From the NCBI RefSeq assembly GCF_026210795.1, contig NC_089442.1:2728001-2792000 (forward strand): a stretch of DNA of 64,000 nt, read 5' to 3'. This DNA comes from Rhizophagus irregularis (lineage: Eukaryota; Glomeromycota; Glomeromycetes; Glomerales; Glomeraceae). Below the pieces are notes generated by a model. That model ran no database searches, was not told the origin of the DNA, and was given only the letters and a program-made list of their open reading frames with translations. Position numbers and translations under genes: made by a program. Below are positions 21,048 through 61,604 of this stretch, piece by piece. The number at the start of each line of letters is the position of its first letter. Within the stretch, counting starts at the first letter, position 1.

Positions 21048-21187
21048 GAGGATCATCGCAACTCTTTCCTGAATTTTTGAAAATACTAATAAAATTTATT
21101 TTTGAAATTTTTGTTTGAAAATTTCTAAGTGCTCGTTCATAATACTAATATTTCCACAGTTGCTTTCCTCTTTACTGAGCTTTAACT

Positions 21188-40794: not shown

Positions 40795-41721
40795 ATGACG
40801 ATACTCGTGTCCGATGCAAAATTATTTGCAATTGTTTTATACTCAACGTTTGTTAATAACGAACATCTGCCTTCTGTCAGAGATATTTGGAAGAATTCTT
40901 GGGTAACTGGAGCTTCCGGAGCATTAGTAATAGGATTAGTTGGTGCAATAGTTGTACCGTTAATTTTATCAGCGATAATTTGTGGACTAGGATTTGGTGT
41001 AGAAGGTGTTGCAGCAGGTTCATTTGGTTCTTGGTTTATGTCATTGTATGGAGGAATGATTGCACGTGGAAGTCTTGTTTCAATTTTGCAATCGATTGGA
41101 GCTGCCGGTTTAGGAACTCTTGGCACTTCAATAAGCAGTAGTTTTGGAGCAGCTATTGGAATTCTTATTGGAGCAATTGGTGGTTCAAATATTGCAACAT
41201 ATTTTAAGGAAATGGATTTAAATGATTCTGAAAACAAAATTTTTGGAAGTTTGGTTCAAATCGAACAAAATACTTATCAAAATAACCATCACATGATTGT
41301 ATTCACACTCATGCCGGCTTTACTATATAATGAAACAGTTTTAAGATGTTTTTTTGAAACATTTATAGCTAGTTCATCATTTGTTGAATCTAAATTATTT
41401 AGATTTAATTTTAAAGAAAATAATTTATCAAAGTTAAAATCAGAACAAGAAAAAGTAAATCATACTGCTTATAATTTGTTAATTGGTAATGATAAAGAAT
41501 TCAAAGTGAAGTCTATTTTTCATAATGATCTATTAATTGGATATAATTTGAATCTTAACAATTATCAATCATCAAATGATAAGGTAAAATTATTGGCTGA
41601 TATTTGGAAACTTATAAATGGTAATATTGTTTTAGATATTGATATTGATAAAATTCGCGATCAATTTCACGATCAAATTCAAAGTCTTTTAAATTATTTT
41701 CATGGCGGATTCAAATTATAA
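40795..41721 (+). CDS. ISG12/IFI27-like membrane protein, copy 1
   Basis: 308 residues, single exon. Residues about 38-130 match the interferon-induced IFI6/IFI27 family: GALVIGLVGAIVVPLILSAI, GFGVEGVAAGSFGSWFMSLY, ARGSLVSILQSIGAAGLGTL and SSFGAAIGILIGAIGGSNIA, giving three small-residue-rich membrane helices with GxxxG motifs. Animal relatives insert into mitochondrial or ER membranes and act in cell death and antiviral responses; the fungal role is unknown. A short hydrophobic N-terminus (KLFAIVLYSAFV) precedes it. Residues about 165-275 form a conserved unassigned domain (FTLMPALLYNETVLRCFFET, SKLFRFNFKENN, LIGYNLNL). The end has a single amphipathic repeat (DIDKIRDQFHDQIQSLL). Start ATG 40795 aligns with a GTG in copies 2 and 4. 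Confidence 0.88.
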   Translation: MTILVSDAKLFAIVLYSTFVNNEHLPSVRDIWKNSWVTGASGALVIGLVGAIVVPLILSAIICGLGFGVEGVAAGSFGSWFMSLYGGMIARGSLVSILQSIGAAGLGTLGTSISSSFGAAIGILIGAIGGSNIATYFKEMDLNDSENKIFGSLVQIEQNTYQNNHHMIVFTLMPALLYNETVLRCFFETFIASSSFVESKLFRFNFKENNLSKLKSEQEKVNHTAYNLLIGNDKEFKVKSIFHNDLLIGYNLNLNNYQSSNDKVKLLADIWKLINGNIVLDIDIDKIRDQFHDQIQSLLNYFHGGFKL

Positions 41722-42184
41722 ATATTGAGAGTTCGTGCAATATGTATATGTATTTATTAGCTATTAGATATGTTACTTTATAAAAATAATAGTAAATTGT
41801 TATATTGTTATGATTTTTTTTCTTTTTACACTCATTGAATGATGGGATATTGGTAAGATATTAGTTACCTCATTTGTATCAATATAATTAGTACATAATT
41901 TCATTTCACCAATAGAGTTTTTTAATGTGACTCTTGGTACTCTTTCAATACTAGTAGTTAGAAATAAAAAATGTGTTTGCCATTGGGCTGAAAATATTGG
42001 ACAGATTGTTTAATTTATAGTTTCAGAATGCTTTAAGTTTTTTTATTTTTAATAATTAATTACGTAGTTGGTTACTTGATAGTTAATATTAAGATAAATA
42101 AACGCAAATTTTCCTGAAATTACAATTTTTAAGATAAAATCAATTTATTTATTTTATGTAAAGGCGATTGCCGGTCTGCGTGAC
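41722..42184. other. Spacer after copy 1
   Basis: AT-rich; no gene seen. Confidence 0.4.
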
Positions 42185-42920
42185 TATAACTATATAACTC
42201 AGGTGATATCACCTGATTAACTTTTCAATTAATAATGTTGATTTGTTTATCTGTTATCAATCTTTTTTTTACCATCCATTAACATCCTTTAACGTTCTCG
42301 ATGTCCTTTAACGTTCTTTTTTTTCTTATTTTTAGACTCTTAAAGGTAAGCTTTTTTTTTTACTATATTTATTTTCTTTTTTGTTTGCTATTGTTCATTA
42401 ATTAACCGTTTTCTTCTTTTTTGTAGATTTTTCAACTTAAGTATCCTAGTAAACGGTAATTTTCAGGCTTTTCAGAATTTCTTAAGTCAGAATTTCATAA
42501 GTCTACAGCAACTAACCAGTTTTTTTTTTCTTTTTCATTTTTCTTCTATTTTGGTCGGGTTTTCCTTGGACTTTTTTGGGTTTCTTTTTTGGGTTTTTTG
42601 GGTTTCTTCTTAGACTCTTTTTCTTCTCATTTTCTTTATACTTTGATTTTGTGATTACTTTTTAATCTCATTTCACTTTTGGTTTTATTTCGATTTTGTT
42701 CTTTTTTTACCTTCTCATACATTTATTTTATCTTTGATTTTATTCATTTTGACCTTGTATATTTTATTTTTGGTTTCATTTTGATTTCATTTTGATCTCA
42801 TTTAATTTTATCTTTGGTTTTTATTTGTTCTGATCTTTGTATATTTTATCTTTTGATCTCATTTATTTAATTTATCTTTGGGACTAATCTTGTATATTTT
42901 TATCTTTGGTTCATTCCAAT
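42185..42920 (+). repeat. Second copy of the CT-rich upstream module
   Basis: It aligns with 39354-40030: 'actcaggtgatatcacctga', 'cattaacatcctttaacgtt', 'agactcttaaaggtaagctt' and 'atttttcaacttaagtatcc' occur in the same order. It lies about 0.7 kb before copy 2, as the first module lies about 0.8 kb before copy 1. This shows that the duplication unit included upstream sequence. Confidence 0.75.
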
Positions 42921-43582
42921 CTTGTTCGACGGTGTTTAGTAAATCACATGAACCAGACCTAATATAATGTAACGGGATTATAGTCTATAGATTTTTCCCA
43001 ATCGTCATTTTTAGATTATAATAAAAATCATCAATCAATTAAAACTATATGTAAAATTATTTTTATGGGATGGGGAGCAAATTAGCAACATTCATCGAAA
43101 TTCGATTCGTTATATCAAAATTTGTTATATTGGGAGCTGAGGTAATTTTTTAAAATTGAGCACAAAAAGCATGAAAAGTGAGAGATCCGCCGCTATTGCG
43201 CCGATTCGATGGCTGAATAATATCAAGGCTTATGCGAGGATTGATCATTAAAAATAAGTATATAGGTCATTAAAAATCCCAAATAAAAGGATAATACAAG
43301 TATTCATAAATTTTATTTTCAATTTACGCCTGGAATTAATTATATATATATTATACATTAAAAATTAGCAGCGAAGCATGTGAAAATAATAACTTAGAAT
43401 TAGCTGGAATTTGTAATACGGATCCGTGTATATTTATTATTCCGGTGGCTGAATTAAAAACCAACTATTAATTAAATCCGTCTGTATAATATAATTTATA
43501 AATTATTATTTAACTGAAAATTTTTCAAATGAAAGAATAATAATAAGGCACTTCTGACAAATTTCAAAAACAAAAAGTGACG
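42921..43582. promoter_or_regulatory. Region upstream of copy 2
   Basis: No gene is seen. It should contain the copy 2 promoter. No defined element can be assigned. Confidence 0.35.
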
Positions 43583-44557
43583 ATGATTCTATCTGATAAA
43601 AAATTATTTGCAATTGTTTTATATTCCGCATTTGTAAAAAATAAATTTCTAATCCCCAATAGAGATATTTGGGAGAATGCTTGGGTAATTGGAATTTCTG
43701 GAGCAATAGCACTAGGATTAGTTGGCGCATTAATTGCGCCGTTTATTTTATCGGCAATAATTGAAGCGTTAGGATTTGGTGTAGAAGGTATTGCAGCAGA
43801 ATCATTTGCTTCTTGGTTTATGTCATTATATGAAGGTACGATTGTACGCGGAAGTCTTGTTTCAATTTTACAATCGATTGGAGCTGCCGGTTTAGGAACT
43901 CTCGGCACTACAATAAGCAGTGGTTTTGGAGCAGCTATTGGAACTCTTATTGGAGCAATTGGGGGCTCTAAACTTGCATCATATTTAAGAGAAATGGATT
44001 TAAATGAAACAGAAAAACAAATGCTTGGAAGTTTTATTAAAATTGAAGAAAGTGTTTATCAAAATAATGATATTATTATGATATTCACACTTATGCCAGC
44101 CTTATTATACAATGACACAATCTTAAAATGTTTCAGTGAAACATTCATATCTTGTTCACCATTTGCTAATTCTAAATTATTTAGATTTAATTTCAAAGAA
44201 AATAAATTAAAATCAGAAGAAGAAAGAGTGAATAATACAGTTTATAATTTGTTAATTGATAATTGTAACAAATCCAGAATAGAATATATTTTTCATGATG
44301 ATTACTTAGTTGGGTATAATTTAAATCTTATTGATTATAAACCATCAAACCTTATGATAAATTTATTGGTGGAAGTTTGGAATATTATAAACGGTAACAT
44401 CATTATTAATATTCCTGATATCGATAAGATTCGTGATCAAATTAATGATCAGATTCACAAAATTGATATTAATAAATTTAATAGTAAAATTAGTGAGCAA
44501 GTTAGTGAAAAAGCTAACGAAATCTCTAAGTTCTTTAATGAGATTCATTTTAAATAG
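43583..44557 (+). CDS. ISG12/IFI27-like membrane protein, copy 2
   Basis: 324 residues from ATG 43583 (MILSDKKLFAIVLYSAFVKN); an in-frame GTG two codons earlier aligns with the start of copy 1. ISG12 domain: GAIALGLVGALIAPFILSAI, GFGVEGIAAESFASWFMSLY, GSLVSILQSIGAAGLGTLGT, SGFGAAIGTLIGAIGGSKLA. The second domain follows (FTLMPALLYNDTILKCFSET; LLIDNCNKSRIEYIFHDDYL). The C-terminus has about two amphipathic repeats (DIDKIRDQINDQIHKIDINK) and ends FFNEIHFK. It and about 450 bp downstream are duplicated as the pseudogene 58204-59055 and its flank. Confidence 0.88.
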   Translation: MILSDKKLFAIVLYSAFVKNKFLIPNRDIWENAWVIGISGAIALGLVGALIAPFILSAIIEALGFGVEGIAAESFASWFMSLYEGTIVRGSLVSILQSIGAAGLGTLGTTISSGFGAAIGTLIGAIGGSKLASYLREMDLNETEKQMLGSFIKIEESVYQNNDIIMIFTLMPALLYNDTILKCFSETFISCSPFANSKLFRFNFKENKLKSEEERVNNTVYNLLIDNCNKSRIEYIFHDDYLVGYNLNLIDYKPSNLMINLLVEVWNIINGNIIINIPDIDKIRDQINDQIHKIDINKFNSKISEQVSEKANEISKFFNEIHFK

Positions 44558-45005
44558 ATATATTAGCTCTTTAGAATAACTTTTGTTTAAGAAATACGTC
44601 GTCAGGTGACAGCTGACATGCGTAAGAGAATTGTATGATTAAATTTATGAATAAATTTTGTTTATATCCTTGTCCTGCATTTTACAAGTTTCAATTCGAC
44701 CTCTTATATTCGGTAGAAAACTCGATCCGATTATTGTTTAATTTGGTTAGAAGCGAATATTTTATTTATCTATCGTAAAAAAATCAAATTATAAAACATA
44801 TATAATCTGCGGCTTGATTCAATTAATACTATATAAATGATTGACTTTACAGACAAGTAGTGGAGAAAAATTTTATTTCTAGTGACTTCAATTACTAAGA
44901 AGACTTTGAAAATTACATGAATCTTAAAAATCCTTATTATTACTTCTAAGTAGATTATCTGGGTCGAACCGACCAGATCGGATTTACAGTAAATTATTAG
45001 TCCGA
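44551..45005 (+). repeat. Downstream flank shared with 59053-59600
   Basis: From the copy 2 stop onward the sequence matches that after pseudogene 58204-59055: 'agaataacttttgtttaaga', 'aatacgtcgtcaggtgacag', 'aagtagattatctgggtcga'. Small indels separate the two. It marks one segmental duplication that includes copies 2 and 3. Confidence 0.8.
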
Positions 45006-45020
45006 TTCAAAATTCGTTAA

Positions 45021-45550
45021 CTATTAGCAATCGTTTTATATTCTTCATTTGTAAATAATGAATTTTTAATTCCTAATAGAGATACTTTGGATAATCCTTG
45101 GATAATTGGAACTACTGGAACATAGCAATAGGATTAGTTGGCGCATTAGTTGCACCAATTATTTTATCAGCAATAATATATGGATTAGGATTTGGTGTAG
45201 GACATTGCAGCAAATTCATTTCCTCTTGGTTTATGTCATTATATGGAGAAACGATCGCACGTGGAAATCTTGTTTCAATTTTACAATCGATTGGAGCTGC
45301 TGGTTTAGGAACTTTGGGTAATTTCTTAAGCAGTAGTTTTGGAGCAGCTATTGGAGCAATTGGAGGTTCAAACCTTGCAGTATTTATAGAGATGAACAAG
45401 GATTCTCTAACAATTGTTACTATTTTTATTTATTTATTTATTTATTTTGTCTTCTAAACGTTCCTATCATTTTTTGTATATCTGATATTATCAATGGTAA
45501 TATCATGATCAGATTAATGATCTTTCATGACAAGTTACAAATTAAATAGA
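45021..45550 (+). pseudogene. ISG12-like copy 3, broken
   Basis: The remnant starts inside the N-terminus (LLAIVLYSSFVNNEFLIPNR) with no ATG. It changes frame near 45120 and keeps most of the ISG12 domain (AIGLVGALVAPIILSAIIYG, ARGNLVSILQSIGAAGLGTL). After EMNKDS it lacks nearly all of the second domain, leaving only a tail trace (aatatcatgatcagattaat, near 45500). It is closest to copy 8 (both read FVNNEFLIP). At least a 5' deletion, a frameshift and an internal deletion are present. Confidence 0.8.
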
Positions 45551-46177
45551 CATATTAGTGATATTATCGGCGGGGTTAAAAGGGTTAGGTAAATGTTAGA
45601 GTTATTCTATTTTTTGTGATTATTTTAAAATAAATAAATTTTTTATAATTATAAAAAAAAATATTGTTAAATATATTATCGGAAACATATCCACATTTCT
45701 TATTTGTCAATGAATATTTTCAATTTTTAAACTTTTCCGCTATGAATCTCACCCTAGTACGGAGAATCGTAAGAGAAGAAAAAATTAAGTCACTAAAATT
45801 TTATACGAAAACGTCGTATTAAAATTATATGAAATTATGCCGAAGTTGTAATTGGTTACTTAATCCAGCCGGATTTAAGTCACTTCTGTAGTTATAACTT
45901 ACCTAATGTACGATTAGTGTTTACTCATTTCGGACGATGTCCGTCCGGCACGTGACAATGTATAACAATGAAACCACTTCGGACTTTTAATGATGGTTTC
46001 CGTTTCGTACACCTATTACAGCATAAAGTTACAACTTTACGGCAAATGAGTCACAACATTTTCAATTACGGTATTGATCTACCTATTTATAAGATTATAT
46101 GCATAGGCACATGTCAATGAGTATATATATATATCTGGTATTTTGCTGGAATCACTTTTAACAAAAAAAAAGTGACA
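45551..46177. other. Spacer before copy 4
   Basis: No gene is seen. It ends with (AT)n at about 46119-46132 close to the copy 4 start and should contain its promoter. Confidence 0.4.
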
Positions 46178-47407
46178 ATGCTCGTTTCTGATGAAAAATT
46201 ATTTGCGATCGTTTTATATTCCGCATTTGTAAACAATGATCTTATAGCTTCTATTAGAGATATTTGGAAGAATTCTTGGGTAACTGGAACTTCCGGAGCA
46301 TTGGTAATAGGATTAGTTGGCGCATTAGCTGCACCATTTATTATATCAGCAATAATTAATGGGTTGGGATTTGGTGTAGGAGGTATTGCAGCAAAATCCT
46401 TTGGCTCTTGGTATATGTCATTGCATGGAGGTATGATTGCACGTGGAAGTCTCATCTCAATTTTACAATCGATTGGAGCTGCTGGTTTAGGACCTTTGGG
46501 TATTTTCTTAACCAGTAGTTTTGGAGGAGCTATTGGAATTCTTATTGGAGCAATTGGTGGTTCAAACCTTGCATCATATTTTAGAGAAATGGATTTAAAT
46601 GGAACTGAAAGACAACTACTTGAAAGATTTATTCAAATTGAAGAAAGTAATTATCAAAATAATAGTACAATTATTGTATTCACACTCATGCCAGCTTTAT
46701 TATATAATGATAAAATGTTGAGATGTTTTTTTGAAACATTTGTAACTAGTTCACCATTTGCCAATTCTAAATTATTTAGATTTGATTTTATAGAAAATAA
46801 TTTATTAAAATTAAAATCAGAAGAAGAAAGAGTGAATTATACCGTTTATAATTCGCTAATTAGTGATTATGATAAGTCTAGATTAGAATATATTTTTCGG
46901 GATGATTATTTTTTAATCGGATATAAGTTAAATCTTGATGATCATAAACCATCGAATCTTATAATAAGTACATTGGTGGAAGTTTGGAATGTACTAAATG
47001 GTAAAATCGTTGTGGGTATTGATGTCTATAAATTTCGTGATCAAATCGATAAATATCGTAATCAAATTAATGATCAAATTAGCAAAATTGATTTTGATAA
47101 ATATCGTGATCAAGCTAGTGATCAAATTAACAATCTTCGTGATCAAATTAATAAAATTGATTTCGACGAACATCGTGATCAAGTTAATGATCAAATTAAC
47201 TATCTTCGTAATCAAATTAATGATCAAATTAACAAGATTGATTTTGATAAATATCGTGATCAAGCTAATGATCAAATTAACAATCTTCGTGATCAAATTA
47301 ATGATCAAATTAACAAGATTGATGTTAATAAATTTAGTAATCAGATTAGTGATCAAGTCAACTACTTTTCAGATTTATTTCATAAAAAGTTTAAAAAATC
47401 TAAATAA
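46178..47407 (+). CDS. ISG12/IFI27-like membrane protein, copy 4, long C-terminal repeats
   Basis: 409 residues from ATG 46178 (MLVSDEKLFAIVLYSAFVNN); GTG two codons upstream is in frame. ISG12 domain: GALVIGLVGALAAPFIISAI, GFGVGGIAAKSFGSWYMSLH, GSLISILQSIGAAGLGPLGI. The second domain (FTLMPALLYNDKMLRCFFET; YFLIGYKLNLDDHKPSN) ends near residue 280. The last about 125 residues are amphipathic repeats (DFDKYRDQASDQINNL, DFDEHRDQVNDQINYL, DVNKFSNQISDQVNYF) encoded by direct DNA repeats with GATCAAATTAATGATCAAAT. Hydrophobic residues every 3-4 positions predict a long helix or coiled coil, possibly for oligomerisation. Confidence 0.88.
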   Translation: MLVSDEKLFAIVLYSAFVNNDLIASIRDIWKNSWVTGTSGALVIGLVGALAAPFIISAIINGLGFGVGGIAAKSFGSWYMSLHGGMIARGSLISILQSIGAAGLGPLGIFLTSSFGGAIGILIGAIGGSNLASYFREMDLNGTERQLLERFIQIEESNYQNNSTIIVFTLMPALLYNDKMLRCFFETFVTSSPFANSKLFRFDFIENNLLKLKSEEERVNYTVYNSLISDYDKSRLEYIFRDDYFLIGYKLNLDDHKPSNLIISTLVEVWNVLNGKIVVGIDVYKFRDQIDKYRNQINDQISKIDFDKYRDQASDQINNLRDQINKIDFDEHRDQVNDQINYLRNQINDQINKIDFDKYRDQANDQINNLRDQINDQINKIDVNKFSNQISDQVNYFSDLFHKKFKKSK

Positions 47408-48417
47408 ATCATATTGGTTAGAATTATATAATTAATAAATTTCATTGTTAAGAATAAGCTTTTTGTTTCCTGACGTTTGTTTTTACAGTTTTATATTAAA
47501 ATGTTTGAAACTAGGTCCGAATATTCATGATGTCTATATTTTTGTCATAAACGACCCAATTATTATTTTATACATAAATGTTTAGTATATGTGTATATAT
47601 GTATATATGTGAAAATCTGCTAAATGATTGAAATTTCCCACAATCTAATGTACATTATATTAGAGATCCTATTAAGATCAATCATTAATCAGCAGCATTA
47701 CAAATTTATTACAAATTTTGGCCAACGTACGAATTTAAATTAATCGATGGTAAAACATATTGTTTTTCTGATAAATTCAACTATAAATATAAAATGGATA
47801 ATATAAAGTAAACTTTGATAAATTTTCTACATTGTATTATGCCTAATATAAAATGTACTATTTAGTATTTATTTGATGTAGCACTACATCTACATACCCG
47901 CTTTTTTTCATATGACCTTTTCTAAGGTGTTGCGAATGCCTTATTGTTTTTATGCCAGGACCCGGATAATTATGTAAAAGCCATATGCAACAATCTGTAC
48001 GCCAGAAGCCAATCGAATTGCACTTTGCAGATCACATTGAACAACAACGAACATAACGCGAACACAGCCCAAATTTGGTTGAGTTCGTTGCATTCGCTTA
48101 GTAAAATATCATGAAGTCACCAACATAATTTTTTTATATCATAATGTTTTGAAACTTAAATTTGCACAAAAATTGTGCAAACCTATTTTGTGTTCGCGTC
48201 GTGTTTGGTGTGTATTTTTTTTTGAAAAGGAAACAATATTTCATCTTAGTATTGTTACTTAGTATTGTTAAATTTCATATGAACGATGATAATCAACCCT
48301 AAATACGCCACGAATTAACTTCATAAAGCATAGCATACAAATAGTACTACCAGTATCGGAATCTTTAACTGAGGTAGTTCGTTACCTTTTTTTTCAAGAG
48401 ATTCTTAATAGCAAGAA
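47408..48417. other. Spacer between copies 4 and 5
   Basis: About 1 kb, AT-rich, with a somewhat GC-richer part at 47940-48080. No gene, RNA or repeat can be supported. Confidence 0.4.
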
Positions 48418-49635
48418 ATGCCGAAACTCATTTCTGACGAAAAATTATTTGCAATAGTTTTATACTCCGCGTTTGTAAGCAATAATCATCTAACTTCCGT
48501 TAGAGATGTTTGGAAGAGTCCTTGGATAACTGGAACTTCTGGAGCACTGGCAATAGGATTAGTTGGTGCAATAGTTGCACCATTTATTTTAACAGCAATA
48601 ATTCGTGGATTGGGATTTGGTCTGGGAGGTATTGCAGCACATTCATTTGGTTCTTGGTTTATGTCATTGTATCGAGGTACAATTGCACGTGGAAGTGTCG
48701 TTTCAATTTTACAATCGATTGGAGCTGTTGGTTTAGGAGCTTTGAGTATTTTCTTAAGCAGTGGTTTTGGAGCAGCTATTGGAATTCTTATTGGAGCAAT
48801 TGGTGGTTTTAAACTTGCAGAATATTTAACAGAAATTAATTTAATTAAAACCGAAGAACAATTGCTTGAAAGTTTCGTTCAAATTGAAGAAAATAATAAT
48901 ATTATTATATTCAAAATCAAACCAGCTTTGTTATATAATGAAGAAGCTTTAAAATGTTTTTTTGAAACATTTAAATCTAGTTCATCATTTGTTAATTCTA
49001 AATTATTTAGAATTGATTTCATAGAAAATGATTTAAAGTTAAAATCAGAAGAAGAAAGAATTCATACTGTTCATAATTTATTAGTTGATAATTATGAAAA
49101 ATTCAGAATAGAATGTATTTATAACGATGGTTACTTGGTTGGATATAATGTAAATCTTAGTGATTATAAACCATCTGATCCTAAGATAAATACATTGGTA
49201 GAAATTTGGAATGTTATGAATGGTAATGTCGTTATAGAATTCATTGATAAAATTCGGGATCAAGTTAATGATCAAATTCGTAACGTTGATGTCAACAAAT
49301 TTCGTGATCAAGTTAATGATCAAATTAACAAAGCTGATATAAATGGACTCCGTGATCACGTTAATAATCAAATTAATCAAATTAGCGATCAAGTTAGTAA
49401 AGTTGATATCAACAAAATTCGGGATCAAGTTAATGATCATATTAACAACATTGATATTAATAAACTTGGTAGTCAAATTGGTGATCAAGTTAATAATCAA
49501 ATTAATCAAATTAAACAAGTCGATATCAATAAATTTCGTGATCAGGTTAATGATCATGTTAAGAATATTAATGTCAATGAAGTTGGTAATCAAATTAGTA
49601 ATCACGTAAATGGAATCTTTCGCAAGTGGTTTTAA
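48418..49635 (+). CDS. ISG12/IFI27-like membrane protein, copy 5, longest repeat tail
   Basis: 405 residues from ATG 48418 (MPKLISDEKLFAIVLYSAFV). ISG12 domain: GALAIGLVGAIVAPFILTAI, GFGLGGIAAHSFGSWFMSLY, GSVVSILQSIGAVGLGALSI. The second domain is more diverged (FKIKPALLYNEEALKCFFET). About seven repeats of the DxNKxRDQVNDQI type fill residues about 275-400 (DVNKFRDQVNDQINKA, DINKIRDQVNDHINNI, DINKFRDQVNDHVKNI), with one irregular spacing. It ends GIFRKWF. No intron. Likely a membrane protein with an extended amphipathic C-terminus. Confidence 0.87.
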   Translation: MPKLISDEKLFAIVLYSAFVSNNHLTSVRDVWKSPWITGTSGALAIGLVGAIVAPFILTAIIRGLGFGLGGIAAHSFGSWFMSLYRGTIARGSVVSILQSIGAVGLGALSIFLSSGFGAAIGILIGAIGGFKLAEYLTEINLIKTEEQLLESFVQIEENNNIIIFKIKPALLYNEEALKCFFETFKSSSSFVNSKLFRIDFIENDLKLKSEEERIHTVHNLLVDNYEKFRIECIYNDGYLVGYNVNLSDYKPSDPKINTLVEIWNVMNGNVVIEFIDKIRDQVNDQIRNVDVNKFRDQVNDQINKADINGLRDHVNNQINQISDQVSKVDINKIRDQVNDHINNIDINKLGSQIGDQVNNQINQIKQVDINKFRDQVNDHVKNINVNEVGNQISNHVNGIFRKWF

Positions 49636-49936
49636 ATAGATGTATTAGTTGTTAAAATATCATTTGTTTATAATCAATAAAATTTGTTAAGAAAAATATT
49701 TTGGTTTATTACCTTATCTCTGAAGTTTTGAATATTCATGTAATTTGATTTCACATATTTGGGTCGATATACTGTATAACCTGAATTTGACTCGACCCAA
49801 TTATTATTACTCGAGCGATCGGACTAAACTTCAAAATTTATTTTTTTCTGGAAATTTTCCATGTAGAATAAACAGAGCTTTTTAAATGGTTAGTATTATT
49901 GTCCGGAGCGAAGCGTGATCTTTGGTGATTATTAAA

Positions 49937-49996
49937 AATTCGTGATCAAATTGATGAAATCTAACTTCTTTCACGATAAGTTTCATTTTAAATAGA
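49937..49996 (+). pseudogene. Relic of an ISG12-like C-terminus
   Basis: 'aattcgtgatcaaattgatg' and 'taagtttcattttaaataga' match the last repeat and stop region of copies 2 and 7 (ending HFK). Nothing else of the gene remains, so this is the end of a deleted copy about 300 bp downstream of copy 5. Confidence 0.6.
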
Positions 49997-50676: not shown

Positions 50677-51611
50677 CAGACCCCGGCGAAAAGAATGGCG
50701 GTCAGTCTTTTTGATATCACGAATGTAATTTATAGTAAAATGTGAAATTTTTTTTTATTTTCTGAAAGAGGAACAGAAAATACATATATTTCATTATTTA
50801 AATAATATTTGATATGATCATCTTCCGTGTCAATAAATGCTTCAATTTAGTATTGTGTACTATTCGCACTCTTAACTAGCGTTATTTTATTATGATATTT
50901 TAATATTTTCTTAGCTTTCTCGCCATCCAGAGGTCAGATTGAGACAAATTTACCACCATTGGATTCCTCTTGACTATGTGGTTCGAATGGTGGTCTAAAA
51001 ATTACTGTGTAGCATCTGTGTAATGTGATAGTTCAAGTATAATAGTAAGTATTATGAATTTTTATGTTGTATAAAGATAAAAGCAATATAAAGGCTCAAT
51101 AATATAATAAAAGACCATTATTTAAATCTCATAATTGCAAGAAATCTAATAGTTGTAATTTTTTTTCAATACAAGCTTTGGTTGATGAGAAAATGAAGTT
51201 TAAACTTTTTATTTCAAACTTTCATACCAAATCCAAAAAATTATTAGTAGTATTTCTCTGTGATAATGTGATATAACAAAATGCAATTATAATATTTGGC
51301 AGTTAAAAGTAAGTGGTTTTTTTTTAAAAAAAAATTGGAATTTATTATTATGTAGGATTTTGAGCATTTTAAAAAAATTCATAGCAAATTATTATGCTCC
51401 GATTCCTATTAAATTTATAACTTCTTGGTTTTTTAGAAGGTAAAATAGGCGTAAAAACAATAATAAATCTTCATTTTTTTTTATTGCTTTTTAAAATAGT
51501 GTTCTAAAAATCCATTGGGCATTACAAGTTTTAATTTAAATAGGAAAATTCTGATCTCATATCCAAAATAACAAATGATATTTGCACCGCCATTCTTTTC
51601 GCCGGGGACTG
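50677..51611. mobile_element. Mariner-type MITE, 935 bp, TA duplication
   Basis: The ends are CAGACCCCGGCGAAAAGAAT and, inverted, CAGTCCCCGGCGAAAAGAAT, both followed by GGCGGT. TA flanks on both sides (50675-50676, 51612-51613). The interior is AT-rich, has no transposase, and includes a short stretch with the aatggtgg motif near 50950-51000. Confidence 0.8.
51148..51611 (+). repeat. Arm of a 5.6-kb-spaced inverted repeat
   Basis: About 465 bp are repeated inverted at 57227-57710 (shared words: 'gcaccgccattcttttcgcc', 'gctccgattcctattaaatt' and its diverged partner). The two arms are the right halves of two copies of the same MITE in opposite orientation. They flank the hidden gene, the decayed gene and copy 6. 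Confidence 0.8.
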
Positions 51612-51839
51612 TATAATGTCTGAGTTCTTTGGGATACGTGCGAAATTGTATCATTATGTCTTGGAAAATGGTAGTGTCGGTTCAAGACATAAAGTGATAA
51701 AAGTGCGAGTAACATATGGTCATTGGAGAATTGGTACATTTCATTACGTAAATACTGGAATATCACGAGAAATGCAAAACAACGGGCAATGACAGCCAAA
51801 ATAGTTATATTATTCACCCTATATTCATGAAGCGAATCC

Positions 51840-52260: not shown

Positions 52261-53003
52261 TTAGAGAGGATCTTAGAGATTATGTTGACGGAGATAAATA
52301 CTTTTGTATCAATCGGTATAAAGTACAATATCTCATTAGACAATTTTTTTTCGTTAAATAAAATAACGTATAACAACATACATAATGTTATTCAAAAAAA
52401 ATTAGTTACATGGATTCCGTTACAGGGTACTGCTAGAATTAGATGCATAAATAAGGTTCAACGTAAGGAATGTGATTACGGTTGGAAGGCGAAGCATCAA
52501 TCAGAAATTTGTTAAAGACAAAATACCCGTGTTTTCGCTATTTGACAAACAACAGACAAATCACAGAGTGAAGCATTACAAAATACATGTTTTCTTCTAT
52601 GAAAATAGTCAGCTAACAATCAAATTAATTAACTACTTATTAGTATTGTAGTGTGAAAACACTTACTGTATATTCAAAGGCACAGATTGCTTTTAATAGA
52701 ATAATTATGCATCATTTACGTAAAAGGACCAAAAAATATGTGGTCAGATACGACATTTGATATAAACACTTTTTATCTTTGAAACTACATTTCTTGGTAT
52801 ACTATCTATTATTATAAAGTGGAACAATGCATAAATTTTGTTCTTCATAAAGCATGCTTAATGAGTGAAACATTCAAAGAGAGTTATACACAAATCATAT
52901 AGTAACAAGAAACTAAATTATATGGTGTACATATATGCAGATTGCGGAAGAAATAGAAAGGTAGAAACCAACTGAAAATTACGGCATAGTTTCAAATTTT
53001 TTA
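52261..53003. other. AT-rich spacer
   Basis: No gene is supported; only short open frames without motif or codon bias. Confidence 0.4.
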
Positions 53004-53707
53004 CTAATCATTAAAAACGTAGGCAGCATCCTCGAATTCGGCAATATGATCGGTCACTTTGTTAATTCTATACATATGGCCTACGTCCGGGTTAGGATCT
53101 ATAGCACTTCTGTCATGTTTTGACCTATATTGCCAAGAAAGTTAGAGGGACATTGCAAATATTTATGAATATAATAAAATTTGTCACTAACCATTGTGGA
53201 CGATTATTAATCCAATTTCCCAATTGACGGCAAGTTCTAAATGAAAATATCGTGTCCGAGTTAAATTCGTTTACGCCACCACCATTAATAATGTTTTCGA
53301 TGAGAATTCTCTAAATAATTTTTTATTCTTAGTTTAATCTACAAAAAATGAATTACAAACAATATTAAAATACCTTTGTTTGACTGCGTCCACGTGGCCA
53401 TGGGTTTCTCCAGTCTATAACCACAATTGGATCATCATCAGGAATTCTGTCAAGTACTTCGAGAATGCGAGCTGCTCTTTGTTTTAAACATACAGGGATT
53501 TCATTAAGATCTAATAAAAAATTTAAAATTATTAAATATAAATGAGTTTAATTTTCATTTACTTTGTATTATAATATGTTCACCTAATTGAAGTTTTTTT
53601 GCGAGTTTAATTTCGTCGTTGTCAACTCCATGTTCTTCGTTATTAACTTCAAGTTTGTCGTTATCAGCACCAAGTTCGACTTTAAGATCATCAATATATG
53701 GATCCAT
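53004..53707 (-). CDS. Four-exon protein-coding gene, family unknown
   Basis: No exon is long enough to appear as an ORF of note, but four exons fit together: 53707-53584, 53510-53374, 53310-53192 and 53124-53004 (124+137+119+121 = 501 nt, exactly 167 codons including TAG). The introns are GT-AG (GTGAAC, GTATTT, GTTAGT donors; acceptors TTATTAG, ATTTAG, ATATAG). The 166-residue product begins MDPYIDDLKVELGADNDKLE, contains PVCLKQRAARILEVLDRIPD and DDPIVVIDWRNPWPRGRSQT, then GNWINNRPQWSKHD, and ends EFEDAAYVFND. Acidic N-terminus, soluble, no known motif I can name. Agreement of phase, length and splice sites argues for a live host gene. Confidence 0.72.
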
Positions 53708-54655
53708 GTCTTTACGTAGAAGAGCAGTAAACAAGAAACAGTTAAGAATTTATTTAAGAATAGAGAATTTATTTACAAAATGTTAATGTAGTGAAGGAGA
53801 ATTTGAGAGAGTTTATTAACAAGTTCAAAAATAAAGGTATTATTATTTTTTTTTCGGTTATACAAACTTTTCTATAAAGCAATGACTCATTAGTTCGAAG
53901 ATATTAATGGATGCTTACGCAAGCACTAAAATTATTATAAGCACGTAATTTATTAAATTATTAATAATACAAAAATGTGATGAGAAAAGGTTATTGGATT
54001 AGCTGTTGTGACTCTTTATATTAATAACAAAATAAAGATTTCGATTTACCAATTTAATATTTTACTGATAAAATCTCTCTTATTCTCAACACAATGTTAA
54101 GCATGTTTTGTACTCAATTAATATAGAGAATGGAATCGATTCTAGCAAAATCACAAAATACCTAGAACTCTATAACTAACCAATCTATTCTAAATTACTA
54201 ATAATTCTAAACTATAATTAATTTTTTTAGTTTATAAATTATATTTGTGTCAATTTACTAAACTACTAAAATAAATTTTTTTTTGATTTTTTTGATATTT
54301 TCTTATTTTTTTCTACTTTTTCATTAAACTAGATACACCAAGAAGATTTATCTAATTAAAATTTATTAAGAAAATAAAGCCGCATCAATCTACGCCCAGC
54401 AAAAATAAAAGAAACAAAAGAAAAGAAATTAATACATTGAAAAATAAAATCCATTAATACACGTCTTAACGGAAACGTTTCGAAAGTCGACTAAAAATCC
54501 ACCACTCAGTCGAGCATTTTCCAACCCTTTTCCAACGCAAAAGAAACGAACCTCATTTTTAAAATTTGTTTAATTGAATAATAATAAATGATAAATTTAT
54601 TGTTCATTCGTTATCAGAATCATCCCTGTTTCCCTGATCCGTTGCTACACGTTTC
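53708..54655. other. Spacer; promoter of the four-exon gene lies here
   Basis: AT-rich. No coding sequence is supported. The promoter for the gene starting at 53707 must lie just above 53708. Confidence 0.4.
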
Positions 54656-55657
54656 TTATTTTCGTTTAAATTGTCTTTTCCATTCTGTATCTTTATTACT
54701 TTTCAAACTCGTAGCTAATGTGCCATCGTTAATTTTCTCGATTCTTTCACTAAATTCCTCATTCAATTTGTTGTAATTTTTGCGTTCTTCTTTACTTCTA
54801 GGCACTGTCGAGACCAAAGCTGCCGATAATTTAGGACTTGTTGGTGCATCTATAAATTGTTTGTCTTCCGATATATGATATACACCTTCACTTGTTACGT
54901 CCCTACCCCGTAGCTTTGTCAAGACCCCGTTCTTTCCTATAATTTCGTCTTGTCCTTTCATCTGTAGACCTTTTCCCATATCTTCTTCCATTGTTGATTT
55001 GTATATGGCCTTTAACAAATCGCTTTCATTGTTAAAATATATCAAATATATTTAAATTTGTTAATTTTGATAATTTTCGCAAAATGGCCCCCATATTGTC
55101 CTACATATTCTTTTATCATCTTGAATTCTTGCTCGTCATTTTACTTTTCACTCAATTTTTTAATTGCTTGCCAACTTCGCCGCGATTGTCGCATCAAATA
55201 TCCTCAAAAAATATCTCCGTTCATTTTTTGTAACCGTAATATTTGAACCGCCTTTAATGAAAATTTCTTCCATTTCTTTTGTTAGACGGATATCAGTTCG
55301 AACAGTCTTGTATTTATAATTACGTTTGACTACCAATCTTTCCACATATCCAAATTTTTTCAGTGTCTCTGAAAATCATAAAATCGTAAATCACGTGACT
55401 TTTCGGCAAAATGTTGAGTTTTTTTTTAACCGGAATTTCTTTATGGCGTTTAGTCTTACTCACTATATTTAGTCATACTACTCGCTTTTCTATTATTTTC
55501 TTGTAAAACGATTTGTTCCTTCGTAGTTACTATCTTTTATCTTTTCTTTAAGATTAATAATTTCTTCCACTTTTAGTTTAAGTAAACGTTCCTTATCTAT
55601 TATATCTTCCTCTTGTAATTTGATTTTGCGTGCTTGTGCTAAACTCTCTGCTTCCAT
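54656..55657 (-). pseudogene. Decaying multi-exon gene, family unknown
   Basis: Minus-strand coding pieces in order: 55657-55500 (MEAESLAQARKIKLQEEDII, then a Lys/Glu-rich coiled coil); after an acceptor-like TTTTCAG, TLKKFGYVERLVVKRNYKYK and MEEIFIKGGSNITVTKNERR (to about 55160); DEQEFKMIKEYVGQYGGHFA near 55110-55060; then ESDLLKAIYKSTMEEDMGKG, LRGRDVTSEGVYHISEDKQF and LNEEFSERIEKINDGTLATS, ending RQFKRK at 54656. Between the last two pieces the frame changes without evident splice sites, so it is probably broken. It may be part of a dispersed fungal family. It starts about 110 bp from the oppositely oriented copy 6, so the two share a divergent promoter region (55658-55764). Confidence 0.5.
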
Positions 55658-55764
55658 AATGGACTTCTTTTCTTACCCTAAATTCAGCTTTATAAAAACG
55701 CACAAATAAATTATTCTTCTGGAAAATCTTTATTTTTAACTGAAATAGTAAATAAATTTTTAAA

Positions 55765-56682
55765 ATGTCGATACTTGTTTCTGATGAAAAATTATTTGCA
55801 ATCATTTTATACTCCGTATTTGTAAACAATAAATATCTACCTTCTGTTAGAGATGCTTGGAAGAATTCTTGGATAACTGGAACTTCTGGAGCATTGGCAA
55901 TAGGGTTAGCTAGTGCAATAGTTGCACCATTTATTATATCAGCAATAATTTATGCGTTGGGATTTGGTACAGGAGGTATTGCAGCACATTCATTTGGCTC
56001 TTGGTTTATGTCATTGTATGGAGGTGTGATCGCACATGGAAGTCTCGTTTCAATTTTACAATCGATTGGAGCTGCTGGTTTAGGATCTTTGGGTATTTTC
56101 TTAAGCAGTAGTTTTGGAGCAGCTATTGGAATTCTTATTGGAGCAATTGATGGTTCTAATCTTGCAAGATATATTGAAGAAAGGGATTTAATTGGAGTAG
56201 AAAAACAAATGCTTAAAAGTTTGGTTCAAATCAAACAAAATACTTATTAAAATAACCATCACATGGTTATATTCACACTCATGCCGGCTTTATTATATAA
56301 TGATACACTTTTAAGATGTTTTTTTGAAATATTTATATCTAGCTCACCATTTGTTAATTCTAAATTGTTTAGATTTGATTTTATGGAAAATGATTTATTA
56401 AAGTTAAAATCAGAAGAAGAAAGATTGAATCGTATTATTCATAATTTGTTAATCAATAATTATGAAAAATCTAGAATAGAATATATTTTTCGCGATAATT
56501 ACTTGGTTGGATTAAAGTTAGACCTTAATGGTTATAAATCATCGAATCTTATAATAAATACATTGGTGGAAGTTTGGAATGTTATAAATTGTAATATCGT
56601 TATGAGTATTGATTTCTATAAATTTCGGGATCAAATTAAAATTAATAAGATTAATACCAACAAGTTTCGTAGTAAATTATAA
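55765..56682 (+). pseudogene. ISG12-like copy 6, one nonsense codon
   Basis: Full-length frame of 306 codons (MSILVSDEKLFAIILYSVFV at the start) with a single in-frame TAA at 56248-56250. Paralogue copy 1 has CAA there (NTYQNNHH against NTY-stop-NNHH). ISG12 domain complete (GALAIGLASAIVAPFIISAI; GFGTGGIAAHSFGSWFMSLY; GSLVSILQSIGAAGLGSLGI). The second domain follows the stop (FTLMPALLYNDTLLRCFFEI). Only about one C-terminal repeat remains (DFYKFRDQIKINKINTNKFR). If expressed, it would give a 161-residue protein that is essentially the ISG12 domain alone, close to the size of animal IFI27. Confidence 0.85.
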
Positions 56683-57226
56683 TCAATTTAATGGTCGTTA
56701 ATGGTCAATGTAGGCAAAAATATAGATTTATTAGTTTAGAAAGTTATATAATAAATAAATTTGGTAAGAAAAATTTTCGGTTTATTAAATACAATTTCAT
56801 AATTTTAAAAATGTTTGAACTGTAATTTACTAATACATTTGAGTTGAACATTCTTGAACTCTGAAAAAAAACTTAAATAACTAAGTGTAAAAAAATTATA
56901 TTATGAAATATCGAGTATTAAGCGTAATAATCATGTGTTTTCTTGAAAAAATATTTTGATTCCACGCAATTCTAAGAATACTTTTACTTTTAGAATTATT
57001 CTGAAATCTGTAGTTTATATATAGAAATATATTTTAAATATCGCACTGAATATTGATTGGATCATTGATTTTCTTTACCGGCTTTTCATATATATTGCTA
57101 ATGTTGGCGATGGAATAAAATTTAATTCCAGGGGTCTAGTTATAAATGATCATCGTATCTGATAGGGCATTGCTCATTGCTAAAGTCCACAGCGGTAATT
57201 GGCTGAAAAATAGGTGCTGTCATATA
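56683..57226. other. Spacer after copy 6
   Basis: AT-rich, no gene seen. Confidence 0.4.
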
Positions 57227-57710
57227 CATTCCTCGGCGAAAAGAATGGCGGTGCGAATATCATTTGTTATTTTGAATATGAGATCAGAATTTTCCTATTT
57301 AAATTAAAACTTGTAATGCCTAATGGATTTTAGAATACTATTTTAAAAAAGCAATAAAAAAAAAATGAAAATTTATTAATGTTTTTACGCCTATTTTACC
57401 TTCTAAAAAATCAAGAAGTATAAATTTAATAGAAATCGGAACATAATAATTTACTATGAATTTTTTTAAATGCTCAAAATCCTACATAATAATAAATTCC
57501 AATTTTTTTTTTAAAAAAAAAACTACTTACTTTTAACTATCAAATATTATAATTGCATTTTGTTATATTACATTATCACAGAGAAATACTACTAATAATT
57601 TTTACATTAAAATTGAATTTGGTATGAAGGTTTGAAATAAAAAGTTTAAACTTCATTTCTCATCAACCAAAGCTTGTATTGAAACAAAATTATAACTATT
57701 AGATTCCATG
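57227..57710 (-). mobile_element. Truncated inverted copy of the mariner-type MITE
   Basis: It starts CATTCCTCGGCGAAAAGAAT after TA and matches 51148-51611 in reverse. The other end is missing. Several mutated TIR bases suggest that it is older or less constrained than the copy at 50677. Confidence 0.75.
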
Positions 57711-58203
57711 CCATTATTTAAGATGCCCTCGAAATGACGAAATTACTGTCCTGTACTCTAAATTCGTTATCATTTGATAAAATCCTGTTGTAATAAGTTA
57801 TATAAAAGTTTTTACATTATGAGGCTGATAAATTAATTGCGCCAGGGGCTGAATAATATTTTATTGTGTCCGCTAGATTACGCAAAAGATTTAAAGATCT
57901 CCAATACTTTGATTTATTAAAGGGCTAAACGAAAGGATGCTCATATATATAACAAAAAGTTATTTAATTTATTTTCAATTTAAATTTGGTCTATCGAATC
58001 TAAATCAATTAAAAAAAAAGCAATAAATAACTGAAATAAAACAAATTAATTGGTAAGCACGATGATACGTAATACATATATGTGTTTTTATATTATTGTT
58101 CCAGTGAATCCCATATATAATCTTTTATTTATAAAATAAATTGAAGTAAGATTCACATATTATTTAACGGATTTCCGGCAAAATTTTTTAATTACAAAAA
58201 AAA
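57711..58203. other. Spacer before copy 7
   Basis: No gene is seen. Short similarity to the region upstream of copy 2 ('ggctgaataatat' in both) supports common ancestry of the flanks. Confidence 0.45.
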
Positions 58204-59055
58204 GTGACGATTATTGAATCTGATAAAAAATTATTTTTATGTTTTATATTCCGCATTTGTAATAAATAAATTTCTAACCACCAATAGAGATAATTGAGAG
58301 AATCCTTGGGTAATTGGAACTTCTGGAGCAATAGCACTAGGATTAGTCGGCGCATTAGTTGTGCCGTTTATTTTATCAGTAATAATTTATGTGTTGGTGC
58401 AGAAGATGTTGCAGCAAGTTCATTTGCTTCTTGGTTTATGTCATTATATGGAGGCACGATTGCACGTGCGTGGAAGACTTGTTTCAATTTTACAATCGAT
58501 TGGAGCTGCTGGTTTAGGAACTCTCGGCACTTCAATAAGCAGTAGTTTTGGAGCAGCTATTGGAACTCTCATTGGGGGTCCTAAAGCTTGCAACATATTT
58601 AAAAGAAATCAAATTTTTGGAAGGTTCGTGAAAATGTTTATCAAAATAATAGTATTAATATATTCATACTTATGCCAGCTTTATTATATATTGATACAAT
58701 GTTAAAATTTTTTTTTTGAAACATTTATGTCTAGTTCATCATTTTCTAATTCTAAATTATTTAGATTTAAAGAAAATAATTATCAAAATTAAAATCAGAA
58801 GAAAAAAAGAGTGAATAATACAGTATATAAAGAATTCAGAGTTAAGTATTTATCATGATGATTAAATCTTGTTGATTTTGAAATGATAAATGGTAACATC
58901 ATTATTAATATTCCTGATATCAATAAGATTCGTGATCAAATTAATGATCAGGTTCACAAAATTAATATCAATAAATTTAGTAGTAAAATTAGTGAGCAAG
59001 TTAATGAAAAAGTTCACGAAATCTCAAAGTTCTTTAATAAGTTTCATTTTAAATA
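58204..59055 (+). pseudogene. ISG12-like copy 7, heavily broken
   Basis: Recognisable pieces in several frames: ESDKKLF, NWNFWSN-type shifted frame, ISAVIYVL region, then SLVSILQSIGAAGLGTLGTS with SISSSFGAAIGTLIG (58361 frame), and a tail (INKIRDQINDQVHKININKF) that ends like copy 2. There are multiple frameshifts, small deletions and stops, including a TGA in the early part ('agagataattgagag'). It is closest to copy 2, whose 3' flank it shares, so it is the decayed sister from a segmental duplication. Confidence 0.82.
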
Positions 59056-59600
59056 GATATATTAGCTCTTTAGAATAACTTTTGTTTAAGAAATACGTCG
59101 TCAGGTGACAGCTGACATGCGCAAGAGAATTGTATGATTAAATTTATGAATAAATTTTGTTTATATCCTTGTCCTGCATTTTATGTGCAAGTTTCAATTC
59201 GACCCGAGTATTCCTCTTATATCCGGTAGAGAGAAAACTCGATTTGATTATTGTTTAATTTGGATACCGGGTTAGAAGCGAATATTTTATTTATCTATTG
59301 TAAAAAAATCAAATTATAAAACATTGAGTATTTAAATCTGAGAATCACCTGAAATATAATCTGCGGCTTGATTCAATAAATACTATAGGTATATTAAATT
59401 CAAATAATTGACTTTACAGACAAGTAGTGGAGAAAATTTTATTTCTAGTGATTTCAATTTATACTAAGAAGATTTTGAAAATTACATGAATCTTAAAAAT
59501 CCTTATCTGTGTTAGATAATTACTTCTAAGTAGATTATCTGGGTCGAACCGAACAGTATGACAGGTTGGATTTAGATTATTGGTCCGATTCAAAATTTGA
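59056..59600 (+). repeat. Downstream flank shared with 44551-45005
   Basis: Same order of words as after copy 2 ('aatacgtcgtcaggtgacag', 'atctgcggcttgattcaa'), with extra short inserts here. The first segment runs straight into copy 3 while this one is followed by about 1.1 kb before copy 8. That difference suggests a deletion that removed the 5' end of copy 3. Confidence 0.8.
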
Positions 59601-60692
59601 GTCGGATCAATTAACCTGATCTATTTGACTCAGATGGAGAACTAGTTGAAACACTTAATTCTAAATTACTTTAAGCAAAAAATTGAATCTTTGCGCATGA
59701 TTTATTAATAAATATAACTGTTAACTTACAATTCTTACAATTAAAGGTAACGAATATAACTACATCCCTGGAAAGCTGGAATAAACGTAATATGACACGT
59801 CATTACAAAATATTTCTACTCCAATCCTATGGCTTATATGTTTCATTGGGTACAAAATTACCAATTTATAATTGTTGCACACTTGGCTTGGTAGTTAGTT
59901 CGAAATAGTACAAAATCTGTAAATACATATTAATTTAATTCTCGGGAATTTTTTATTTTATTTTATTTTTTTTTATTTTTAATAACGCATTTCTTATTAA
60001 TTAAATCATATTTGCATAGATTACACATTAATTTTAGAAATACATAGAGGTAAACAATTATAAAAATTGAATATCCCTATAACTAAATAGTCTAATAATA
60101 TGCTAAAAGATCTAACTAAGACACGTGATCTGTAATAAGAAAATTAAAGTATAACGTTTACAAAATATATTTTGAAGTTAACCTAATTACACTTAAAGAA
60201 AATTTACTAATACTATCTTTCTTTACATCCGAATCGTCCGAACTTAGATTTTCCGTATTTGGTTTTGTTGGCGTTTATATTTAAAGGTAATACAGATCGG
60301 GTTAATACTTGCAATTGATCAGTGGCGTACGCCACTCTAAAACTAGTTTTGATTAAAAACTTGATTTGGAGAACAACAATATTAACGTTAACATTGTTTA
60401 ATGATCAGCAAATTTGTGATATCGTGATTAGGATCCTAATATATAAATAGGTAACAAAGAGATCGGCACCATCTAGGGCCAGAATTACATAATGCCACCT
60501 GGCATTATCCTAGAAAGGAAGGAGCTACACGTTATTCTACGCTAACTCTGTATTGTTACCTTTTTTTTGTTTTGCTCGGGAACCTGCGACTTCTGTCGTG
60601 ATACATGTGTATTAATTAAATATGTTCACATGTTGTTGCAATAATCATTATAAAATGAGAATTTCCTAAGTAATAAGGATTAATTATTAACA
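59601..60692. promoter_or_regulatory. Region upstream of copy 8
   Basis: No gene is seen. A perfect 16-bp palindrome, AGTGGCGTACGCCACT, lies at 60321-60336, about 360 bp before the copy 8 start; it could be a factor-binding site. The element 'ttgttaccttttttttg' near 60553 resembles 'ttcgttaccttttttttc' upstream of copy 5 (about 48380). Both are candidates only. Confidence 0.4.
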
Positions 60693-61604
60693 ATGTATTT
60701 GTCTGATAAAAAATTATTAGCAATCGTTTTATATTCTGCATTTGTAAACAACGAATTTTTAATTCCTGTTAGAGATACTTGGGATAATCCTTGGATAATT
60801 GGAACTTCTGGAGCATTAGCAATAGGATTCGTTGGCGCATTAGTTGCACCAATTATTTTATCAGCAATAATATATGGATTAGGATTTGGTGTAGAAGGCA
60901 TTGCAGCAAATTCATTTGCCTCTTGGTTTATGTCATTATATGGAGGTACGATCGCACGTGGAAGTCTTATTTCAATTTTACAATCGGTTGGAGCTGCTGG
61001 TTTAGGAACTTTGGGAACTTTCTTAAGCAGTAGTTTTGGAGCAGCTATTGGAATTCTTATCGGAGCAATTGGTGGTTCAAACCTTGCATCATATTTAAAA
61101 GAAATGGATCTAACTGAATTTGAAAATCAAATTCTTGAAAGTTTGGTTCAAATTGAAGAAAATATTTATCAAAATAATAGTATTGTTATATTTACACTTA
61201 TGCCACTTTTATTATCTAATAGTACAATGTTAAAATGTTTTGCTGAAACATTTATATCTTGTTCACCATTTGTTAACTCTAAATTATTTAGATTTGATTT
61301 TAAAGACATTAATTTATTAAAATCAGATGAAGGAAGGGTTAATTATATTGTTAATAATTTGTTAATTGGTGATTATAACAAAACCAGAGCAAAATATATT
61401 TTTCATGATGATTATTTGATCGGATATAATTTAAATCTTAGCGATCATGAACCATCAAATCTTATGTTAAATATGTTAGTGGAAATTTGGAACATTTTAA
61501 ATGGTAATATTATTGTAGATTTTGGAATTGATAATATTCGTAATCAAATCAATGATGAAATTCACAATTTAATAAATTACTTTCATGATAAAGTTCATCT
61601 TTAA
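60693..61604 (+). CDS. ISG12/IFI27-like membrane protein, copy 8
   Basis: 303 residues from ATG 60693 (MYLSDKKLLAIVLYSAFVNN). ISG12 domain at residues 36-128: GALAIGFVGALVAPIILSAI, GFGVEGIAANSFASWFMSLY, ARGSLISILQSVGAAGLGTL, SSSFGAAIGILIGAIGGSNL. The second domain spans about 160-275 (FTLMPLLLSNSTMLKCFAET; KTRAKYIFHDDYLIGYNLNL). Only one tail repeat (GIDNIRNQINDEIHNLINYF), as in copy 1. No intron. Closest to broken copy 3. Confidence 0.88.
   Translation: MYLSDKKLLAIVLYSAFVNNEFLIPVRDTWDNPWIIGTSGALAIGFVGALVAPIILSAIIYGLGFGVEGIAANSFASWFMSLYGGTIARGSLISILQSVGAAGLGTLGTFLSSSFGAAIGILIGAIGGSNLASYLKEMDLTEFENQILESLVQIEENIYQNNSIVIFTLMPLLLSNSTMLKCFAETFISCSPFVNSKLFRFDFKDINLLKSDEGRVNYIVNNLLIGDYNKTRAKYIFHDDYLIGYNLNLSDHEPSNLMLNMLVEIWNILNGNIIVDFGIDNIRNQINDEIHNLINYFHDKVHL

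What the first reader, a model, noticed from the sequence alone, without database searches (positions are those of the whole stretch)
40795..61604. Tandem array of fungal ISG12 (IFI6/IFI27)-like genes with an added C-terminal domain
Seen: eight same-strand copies plus one tail relic, all with the pattern IGLVGALVAPFILSAI...GFGxxGIAAxSFxSWFMSLYGG...ARGSLVSILQSIGAAGLGTL...SSFGAAIGxLIGAIGG. This lines up closely with animal IFI27 (VPMVLSAMGFTAAGIA..S; GSLVATLQSLGATGLSG). Known: IFI6/IFI27 proteins are small membrane proteins of innate immunity and apoptosis. New here: a fungal expansion with a conserved domain of about 150 residues and a repeat tail not present in the animal proteins. Inference: a membrane-acting stress, cell-death or recognition system under birth-and-death evolution.
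Basis: partly seen in the sequence, partly recalled or inferred. Interest (0 to 1): 0.88.

Follow-up and report, generated by a model that had tools for sequence, protein, structure and literature searches.

The report
Tandem array of ISG12-domain membrane genes
A DNA window that looks fungal carries a small cluster of duplicated genes whose proteins join a membrane-type domain, known from animal interferon-response proteins, to an extra domain of unknown kind, so the relatives of these animal immune proteins may reach further and take other shapes than the animal work suggests.

Summary
Eight same-strand copies lie between 40795 and 61604: five intact single-exon genes (303-409 codons from ATG), one with an in-frame TAA at 56248, two decayed, plus a tail relic near 49940. 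All 5 intact proteins score 57.6-65.2 bits for Pfam PF06140 (cut-off 29.1); their profile finds IFI27L1 (PDB 2loq, E 5e-7), and 2000 shuffles of that stretch score at most 7.0 bits against 28.4. So this is homology, not generic Gly/Ala helix. The added domain (about residues 131-278) is kept in these copies, matches no family above cut-off and gives only low-confidence models (mean pLDDT 40 and 53). The tail runs from 25 to 130 residues in the intact copies. Intact copies are 78-83% identical, pooled dN/dS 0.42-0.59 in three regions. 'Fungal', and the distribution outside this window, could not be tested: no eukaryote genomes are held. An immune or cell-death role is inference from animal relatives. 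Best reading: a membrane-inserted glycine-zipper core carrying a soluble regulatory domain, expanded by birth and death. New variant of a known kind.

The parts
40795..41721 (+). Copy 1, intact, 308 aa; ISG12 core at residues 43-125 (about 40921-41169), then the added domain, tail of 25 residues
43583..44557 (+). Copy 2, intact from ATG 43583 (324 aa; aligned GTG at 43577), tail of 45 residues
45021..45551 (+). Decayed copy: frame change at the start of the core, most of the added domain lost, possible tail trace at about 45500-45551; closest to the copy at 60693 (91.3% over 380 columns)
   Evidence: tail trace judged by eye
46178..47407 (+). Copy 3, intact from ATG 46178 (409 aa; aligned GTG at 46172), tail of 127 residues
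48418..49635 (+). Copy 4, intact, 405 aa, tail of 130 residues
49938..49995 (+). Tail-end relic (reads IRDQIDEI then a stop in one frame; its last bases match the end of the 58204 copy)
55765..56682 (+). Copy with an in-frame TAA at 56248, otherwise full length
58204..59057 (+). Decayed copy with frame changes; groups with copy 2 (87.9% over 704 columns), shared 3' flank about 80% over 541 columns
60693..61604 (+). Copy 8, intact, 303 aa, tail of 25 residues
47028..47356 (+). Tandem repeats coding the tail of copy 3 (among the periods: 69 and 81 bases, 23 and 27 residues)
49245..49604 (+). Tandem repeats coding the tail of copy 4 (among the periods: 48, 69 and 117 bases)

Best explanation
A tandem family of membrane proteins. 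Shown: each of the five intact copies has an N-terminal stretch of about 40 residues, an ISG12 (PF06140) core homologous to animal IFI27-type proteins and ending in a glycine zipper (GxxxGxxxGxxxG), an acidic added domain of about 150 residues, and a tail whose length varies, repeat-rich in copies 3 and 4. Inferred: the core inserts as a helical hairpin into an organelle membrane (mitochondrion or ER, by analogy with IFI27 and IFI6) and self-associates through the zipper; the added domain faces the cytosol and binds a ligand or partner that controls assembly; the tail is a helix that sets assembly size or membrane contact. The likely outcome is stress- or infection-dependent control of organelle membrane permeability. 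Copies arise and die by unequal exchange, with the added domain changing faster than the core.
For: PF06140 in 5 of 5 intact proteins at 57.6-65.2 bits against a cut-off of 29.1. Profile match to IFI27L1, E 5.1e-7, along the core; real stretch 28.4 bits against a best of 7.0 in 2000 shuffles. Glycine zipper in 5 of 5. A hydropathy peak within residues 32-75 in 6 of 6 copies (five intact and the TAA copy), a second within 92-134 in 4 of 6. Added domain in the five intact copies and the TAA copy; net charge -1 to -9 over residues 131-278 of the five. Pooled dN/dS of the five intact copies: N-terminus 0.42, core 0.48, added domain 0.59; bootstraps at or above 1: 1, 0 and 0 of 60. dN 0.122 in the core against 0.221 in the added domain. 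Animal ISG12a/IFI27: reported mitochondrial, with effects on mitochondrial membrane permeability (passages of PMC10175689). ER location of IFI6 is recalled.
Against: No expression, localisation or activity data. The second hydrophobic peak is missing in 2 of 6 copies (copies 1 and 2). The tails of copies 3 and 4 have their strongest hydrophobic moment at 92 degrees per residue, not near 100 (steps of 4 degrees), so neither a plain amphipathic helix nor a regular coiled coil is supported. Structure models are poor (mean pLDDT 40.3; 52.8; the N-terminus and core are under 50), so hairpin, facing and tail helix are not shown. No neighbouring immune gene was seen: of 19 other ORFs scanned with Pfam (of the 104 stop-to-stop frames, which include the array's own), 4 match above cut-off, all transposon-type. 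dS is also lower in the core than in the added domain (0.252 against 0.377), so part of the core's likeness may be gene conversion rather than constraint.
Confidence: 0.4

Rival explanations
1. A structural or housekeeping membrane protein family (for example organelle membrane shaping or lipid contact), with no link to defence or cell death; the tandem array is ordinary duplication in a repeat-rich genome.
For: Purifying selection in three tested regions and no pooled dN/dS above 1 (single pairs go above 1, for example in the short N-terminus); copy 3's tail has weak, sub-cut-off likeness to apolipoprotein and coiled-coil models; no immune neighbours found in the 19 ORFs scanned.
Against: High turnover (three of eight copies broken) is less usual for housekeeping genes (general knowledge); studied animal relatives act in antiviral and death pathways (passages).
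Confidence: 0.35
2. A fungal-type immune or allorecognition effector: the added domain recognises a variable partner and releases the pore-like core, like HeLo/MLKL-type effectors in principle.
For: Glycine-zipper core plus a faster-changing second domain in a birth-and-death array; pore-forming effectors of this general kind are known in fungal immunity (passages of PMC9815663).
Against: No HeLo-type match listed at E up to 10 in the five proteins (its filters drop most matches above about 0.1); no NLR match in the 19 other ORFs scanned; pooled dN/dS of the added domain is below 1; two papers on fungal immunity, searched inside, hold no 'interferon'.
Confidence: 0.12
3. The added domain is a degenerate 2H phosphoesterase (AKAP7/LigT-like), giving an RNA- or nucleotide-binding sensor on a membrane anchor.
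For: Copy 8 scores 23.7 bits (E 5e-5) for PF10469 when the domain is scanned alone, 21.8 bits in the whole protein.
Against: Below the cut-off of 24.4; 0 of the other 4 scanned domains list PF10469 at E up to 10; no HxT/S motif in the added domain of any of 5 (the motif is recalled); no 2H protein among the 50 listed of 805 weak fold matches.
Confidence: 0.05
4. Not homologous: chance likeness of Gly/Ala-rich helices.
For: The core is rich in G, A, I and L.
Against: as above; the alignment keeps GF...G.AA.S and GS...ILQS.GA.GL, and copy 8 is 42% identical to the IFI27L1 stretch.
Confidence: 0.02

Closest known systems
IFI27/ISG12 and IFI6 (FAM14, PF06140) of animals
   Same: Core of about 83 residues matches nearly the whole Pfam model and PDB 2loq
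   Different: 303-409 residues instead of 113 (2loq chain) or 122 (IFI27); the core is followed by an added domain and a tail. Interferon control is a vertebrate matter (recalled), though a shrimp member is described (passages of PMC9144789)
Thielaviopsis punctulata protein KKA29592.1
   Same: A fungal protein for which a paper's table lists PF06140 beside another domain (one table row)
   Different: The partner listed is Ferritin_2, and the row gives no score; its sequence was not compared here
Fungal HeLo/MLKL-type pore-forming effectors
   Same: In principle only: membrane-acting part joined to a regulatory part
   Different: No sequence match listed, no NLR match in the ORFs scanned

Membership tests
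Ifi-6-16 / ISG12 (PF06140) | Score above Pfam's curated cut-off over the full model | tested here: met
   5 of 5 intact proteins, profile positions 2 to 83 or 84 of 84
Ifi-6-16 / ISG12 (PF06140) | Alignable to an animal member along the core | tested here: met
   2loq: E 5.1e-7 with the profile, 1.6e-4 with copy 3 alone
Ifi-6-16 / ISG12 (PF06140) | Hydrophobic, membrane-type segments | tested here: inconclusive
   First peak in 6 of 6 copies, second in 4 of 6
FAM14 of animals (IFI6/IFI27) | Small protein made up mostly of the core | tested here: not met
   303-409 residues with a further domain and tail
FAM14 of animals (IFI6/IFI27) | Interferon induction; mitochondrial or ER location | not testable with these tools
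   No expression or localisation data
2H phosphoesterase (PF10469) | Score above cut-off | tested here: not met
   Best 23.7 against 24.4, in 1 of 5 domains scanned
2H phosphoesterase (PF10469) | HxT/S motifs in the domain (recalled) | tested here: not met
   0 of 5 (the single hit, in copy 4, lies at residue 24, outside the domain)
HeLo-type fungal death effectors | Match to a HeLo-type Pfam model | tested here: not met
   None listed at E up to 10 in 5 proteins

The most novel reading that the evidence does not exclude
ISG12 proteins are an old membrane-effector system that predates interferon, and in this organism they have become a polymorphic, partner-gated family: the added domain senses invaders or non-self nuclei and the zipper core permeabilises organelles.
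Probability: 0.1. Interest if true: 0.85.

Novelty: new variant of a known kind. Interest (0 to 1): 0.45.

Why it matters
IFI6 and IFI27 are studied as vertebrate interferon effectors, and the reports on IFI6 conflict (passages of PMC5850085). A non-animal array with the same core joined to another domain would suggest that the core is older than interferon, give natural variation to map which residues matter, and point to a simple host in which to test what it does to a membrane.

Tried and rejected
Homologues in other collections: the search for related loci found none in viral contigs or genome contigs; these scans rely on two short peptide patterns each and cover bacteria, archaea and viral contigs, so they say little. 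tblastn of copy 8 against plasmids at E up to 1: no match. The window's own genome is not held. 2H phosphoesterase idea: rejected. The best fold matches (E 0.012, TM 0.33) are ribosome chains, by recall protein eS7; the 50 rows listed, of 805, have TM by query length of 0.25-0.39, and the model has mean pLDDT 52.8, so they are not used. PDB search with the added domain: only Fdc1 at E 0.37, taken as chance. Copy 3's weak PDB matches to tetanus toxin (0.088) and a surface lipoprotein (0.59) and its sub-cut-off Pfam matches (22 families besides PF06140) lie almost all in the tail and are taken as coiled or low-complexity likeness. NCBIfam at E up to 0.001: 0 families for 5 proteins. Rfam at gathering scores and ARAGORN with the bacterial code: 0. 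A hidden intron over the TAA of the 55765 copy: no candidate by a simple pattern. Paper searches: in this open-access library no title listed was about this family in fungi; two searches listed 20 of 80 and 20 of 709 papers; the one fungal mention found is a table row. Statistics limits: five intact sequences only; pairs share history; (which includes the TAA copy) used 14 of 15 pairs for the tail; the script skipped pairs without a usable estimate and did not print how many, and gave no tail value.

Full report
What is there. Eight copies of one gene lie on the + strand between 40795 and 61604 (tblastn; direct repeats). Five are intact single-exon reading frames of 303 to 409 codons counted from ATG (starts). 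The copy at 55765 is full length but for an in-frame TAA at 56248; it may be a pseudogene or carry a sequencing error. The copies at 45021 and 58204 are decayed, and a tail relic lies at about 49938-49995. In an approximate nucleotide tree the decayed copy at 45021 groups with the copy at 60693 (support 0.989) and that at 58204 with copy 2 (0.998); copy 2 and the 58204 copy also share their 3' flank. Other splits are weaker (0.345 to 0.968). The order on the DNA thus does not simply follow relatedness, as expected for repeated exchange and loss.

Is it the ISG12 family? Yes for the core. All five intact proteins match PF06140 over nearly the whole model, 57.6 to 65.2 bits against a cut-off of 29.1. 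A profile of the five finds, among PDB chains at E up to 1, only IFI27L1 (2loq, E 5.1e-7). To test the objection that Gly/Ala-rich helices suffice, the matched stretch of 2loq was shuffled 2000 times: best shuffle 7.0 bits, real 28.4 (20.0 against 48.8 without the composition correction). The profile covers the full length of the proteins, and the shuffles keep composition only.

What is added. After the core come about 150 residues kept in the five intact copies and in the TAA copy. Five of these six were scanned: no Pfam family above cut-off. The whole proteins match no NCBIfam family at E up to 0.001, and the domain profile no PDB sequence convincingly. Two AlphaFold2 runs, on the whole of copy 8 with five sequences and on the domain of copy 2 with six, had mean pLDDT 40.3 and 52.8, yet gave the same order of elements in this part: helix, two strands, helices, strand, helix, two strands, helix. 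Fold search gave only weak matches (best E 0.012, TM 0.33). The fold is therefore unknown. The tail is 25, 45, 127, 130 and 25 residues long in copies 1, 2, 3, 4 and 8, with tandem repeats in copies 3 and 4, so its length changes fast.

Selection. The five intact copies are 78.1-82.9% identical in nucleotides over 10 pairs. A simulation of unconstrained substitution at 10% per copy left an open frame in 4, 2, 0, 1 and 2 of 1000 runs (at 5%: 44, 49, 22, 27 and 44; no insertions, simple base bias). Pooled dN/dS was 0.42 (N-terminus), 0.48 (core) and 0.59 (added domain), with 1, 0 and 0 of 60 bootstraps at or above 1. So these are, or were until recently, working genes, with the added domain changing at nearly twice the amino-acid rate of the core (dN 0.221 against 0.122). 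dS differs too (0.377 against 0.252), which may point to some gene conversion in the core. No positive selection was detected in these pooled values; single sites were not tested.

How it may work. The core ends in a glycine zipper in 5 of 5, a motif known (recalled) for packing membrane helices into oligomers. Animal ISG12a/IFI27 is reported at mitochondria with effects on membrane permeability (passages of PMC10175689), while a review calls the IFI6 results in hepatitis C conflicting (passages of PMC5850085). By analogy the simplest model is a membrane-inserted, self-associating core whose state is set by the added domain and tail. Each step after the anatomy is inference. Against it: a second hydrophobic peak is missing in copies 1 and 2, and the hydrophobic moment of the long tails peaks at 92 degrees rather than near 100.

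What could not be settled. Whether the fusion is new: no eukaryote genomes are searchable here. From memory, PF06140 is listed in many fungi, and one table in print lists it in Thielaviopsis punctulata, so 'ISG12 in a fungus' alone is probably not new; the array with this added domain may be.

Verdict. A real finding with the right family name; the immune reading is open. Interest 0.45.

Noticed in passing
20000-28700: GC-richer island (0.37-0.45 in 2-kb steps from 20001 to 28000, against 0.25-0.35 elsewhere) with a long endonuclease/reverse transcriptase/RNase H element: probably a young non-LTR retroelement.
   Followed up: partly
50677-51613: Inverted ends sharing an exact 21-base core (arms at 50681 and 51587; first seen by eye), about 0.9 kb apart, in the gap between copies: looks like a small transposon without genes.
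   Followed up: partly
5769-6852 and 13414-14558: Two related series of reading frames with Asp/Asn-rich ends (by eye): a second duplicated gene family; the two first frames have no Pfam match above cut-off.
   Followed up: partly
7931-9466: Tnp2-family transposase on the minus strand (PF02992, E 1.4e-15).
   Followed up: partly
15168-15839: A repeated peptide (SMNRHSFSILFVIEIKTGICYFKYCFYR-type units) in two open stretches, 15168-15419 and 15588-15839: a tandem repeat that happens to be open, or a piece of a repetitive gene.
   Followed up: no
39423-39663 and 42254-42488: Stretches upstream of copy 1 are repeated upstream of copy 2 at 89% and 93% (families D19 and D20), so the duplicated unit was larger than the gene.
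   Followed up: partly
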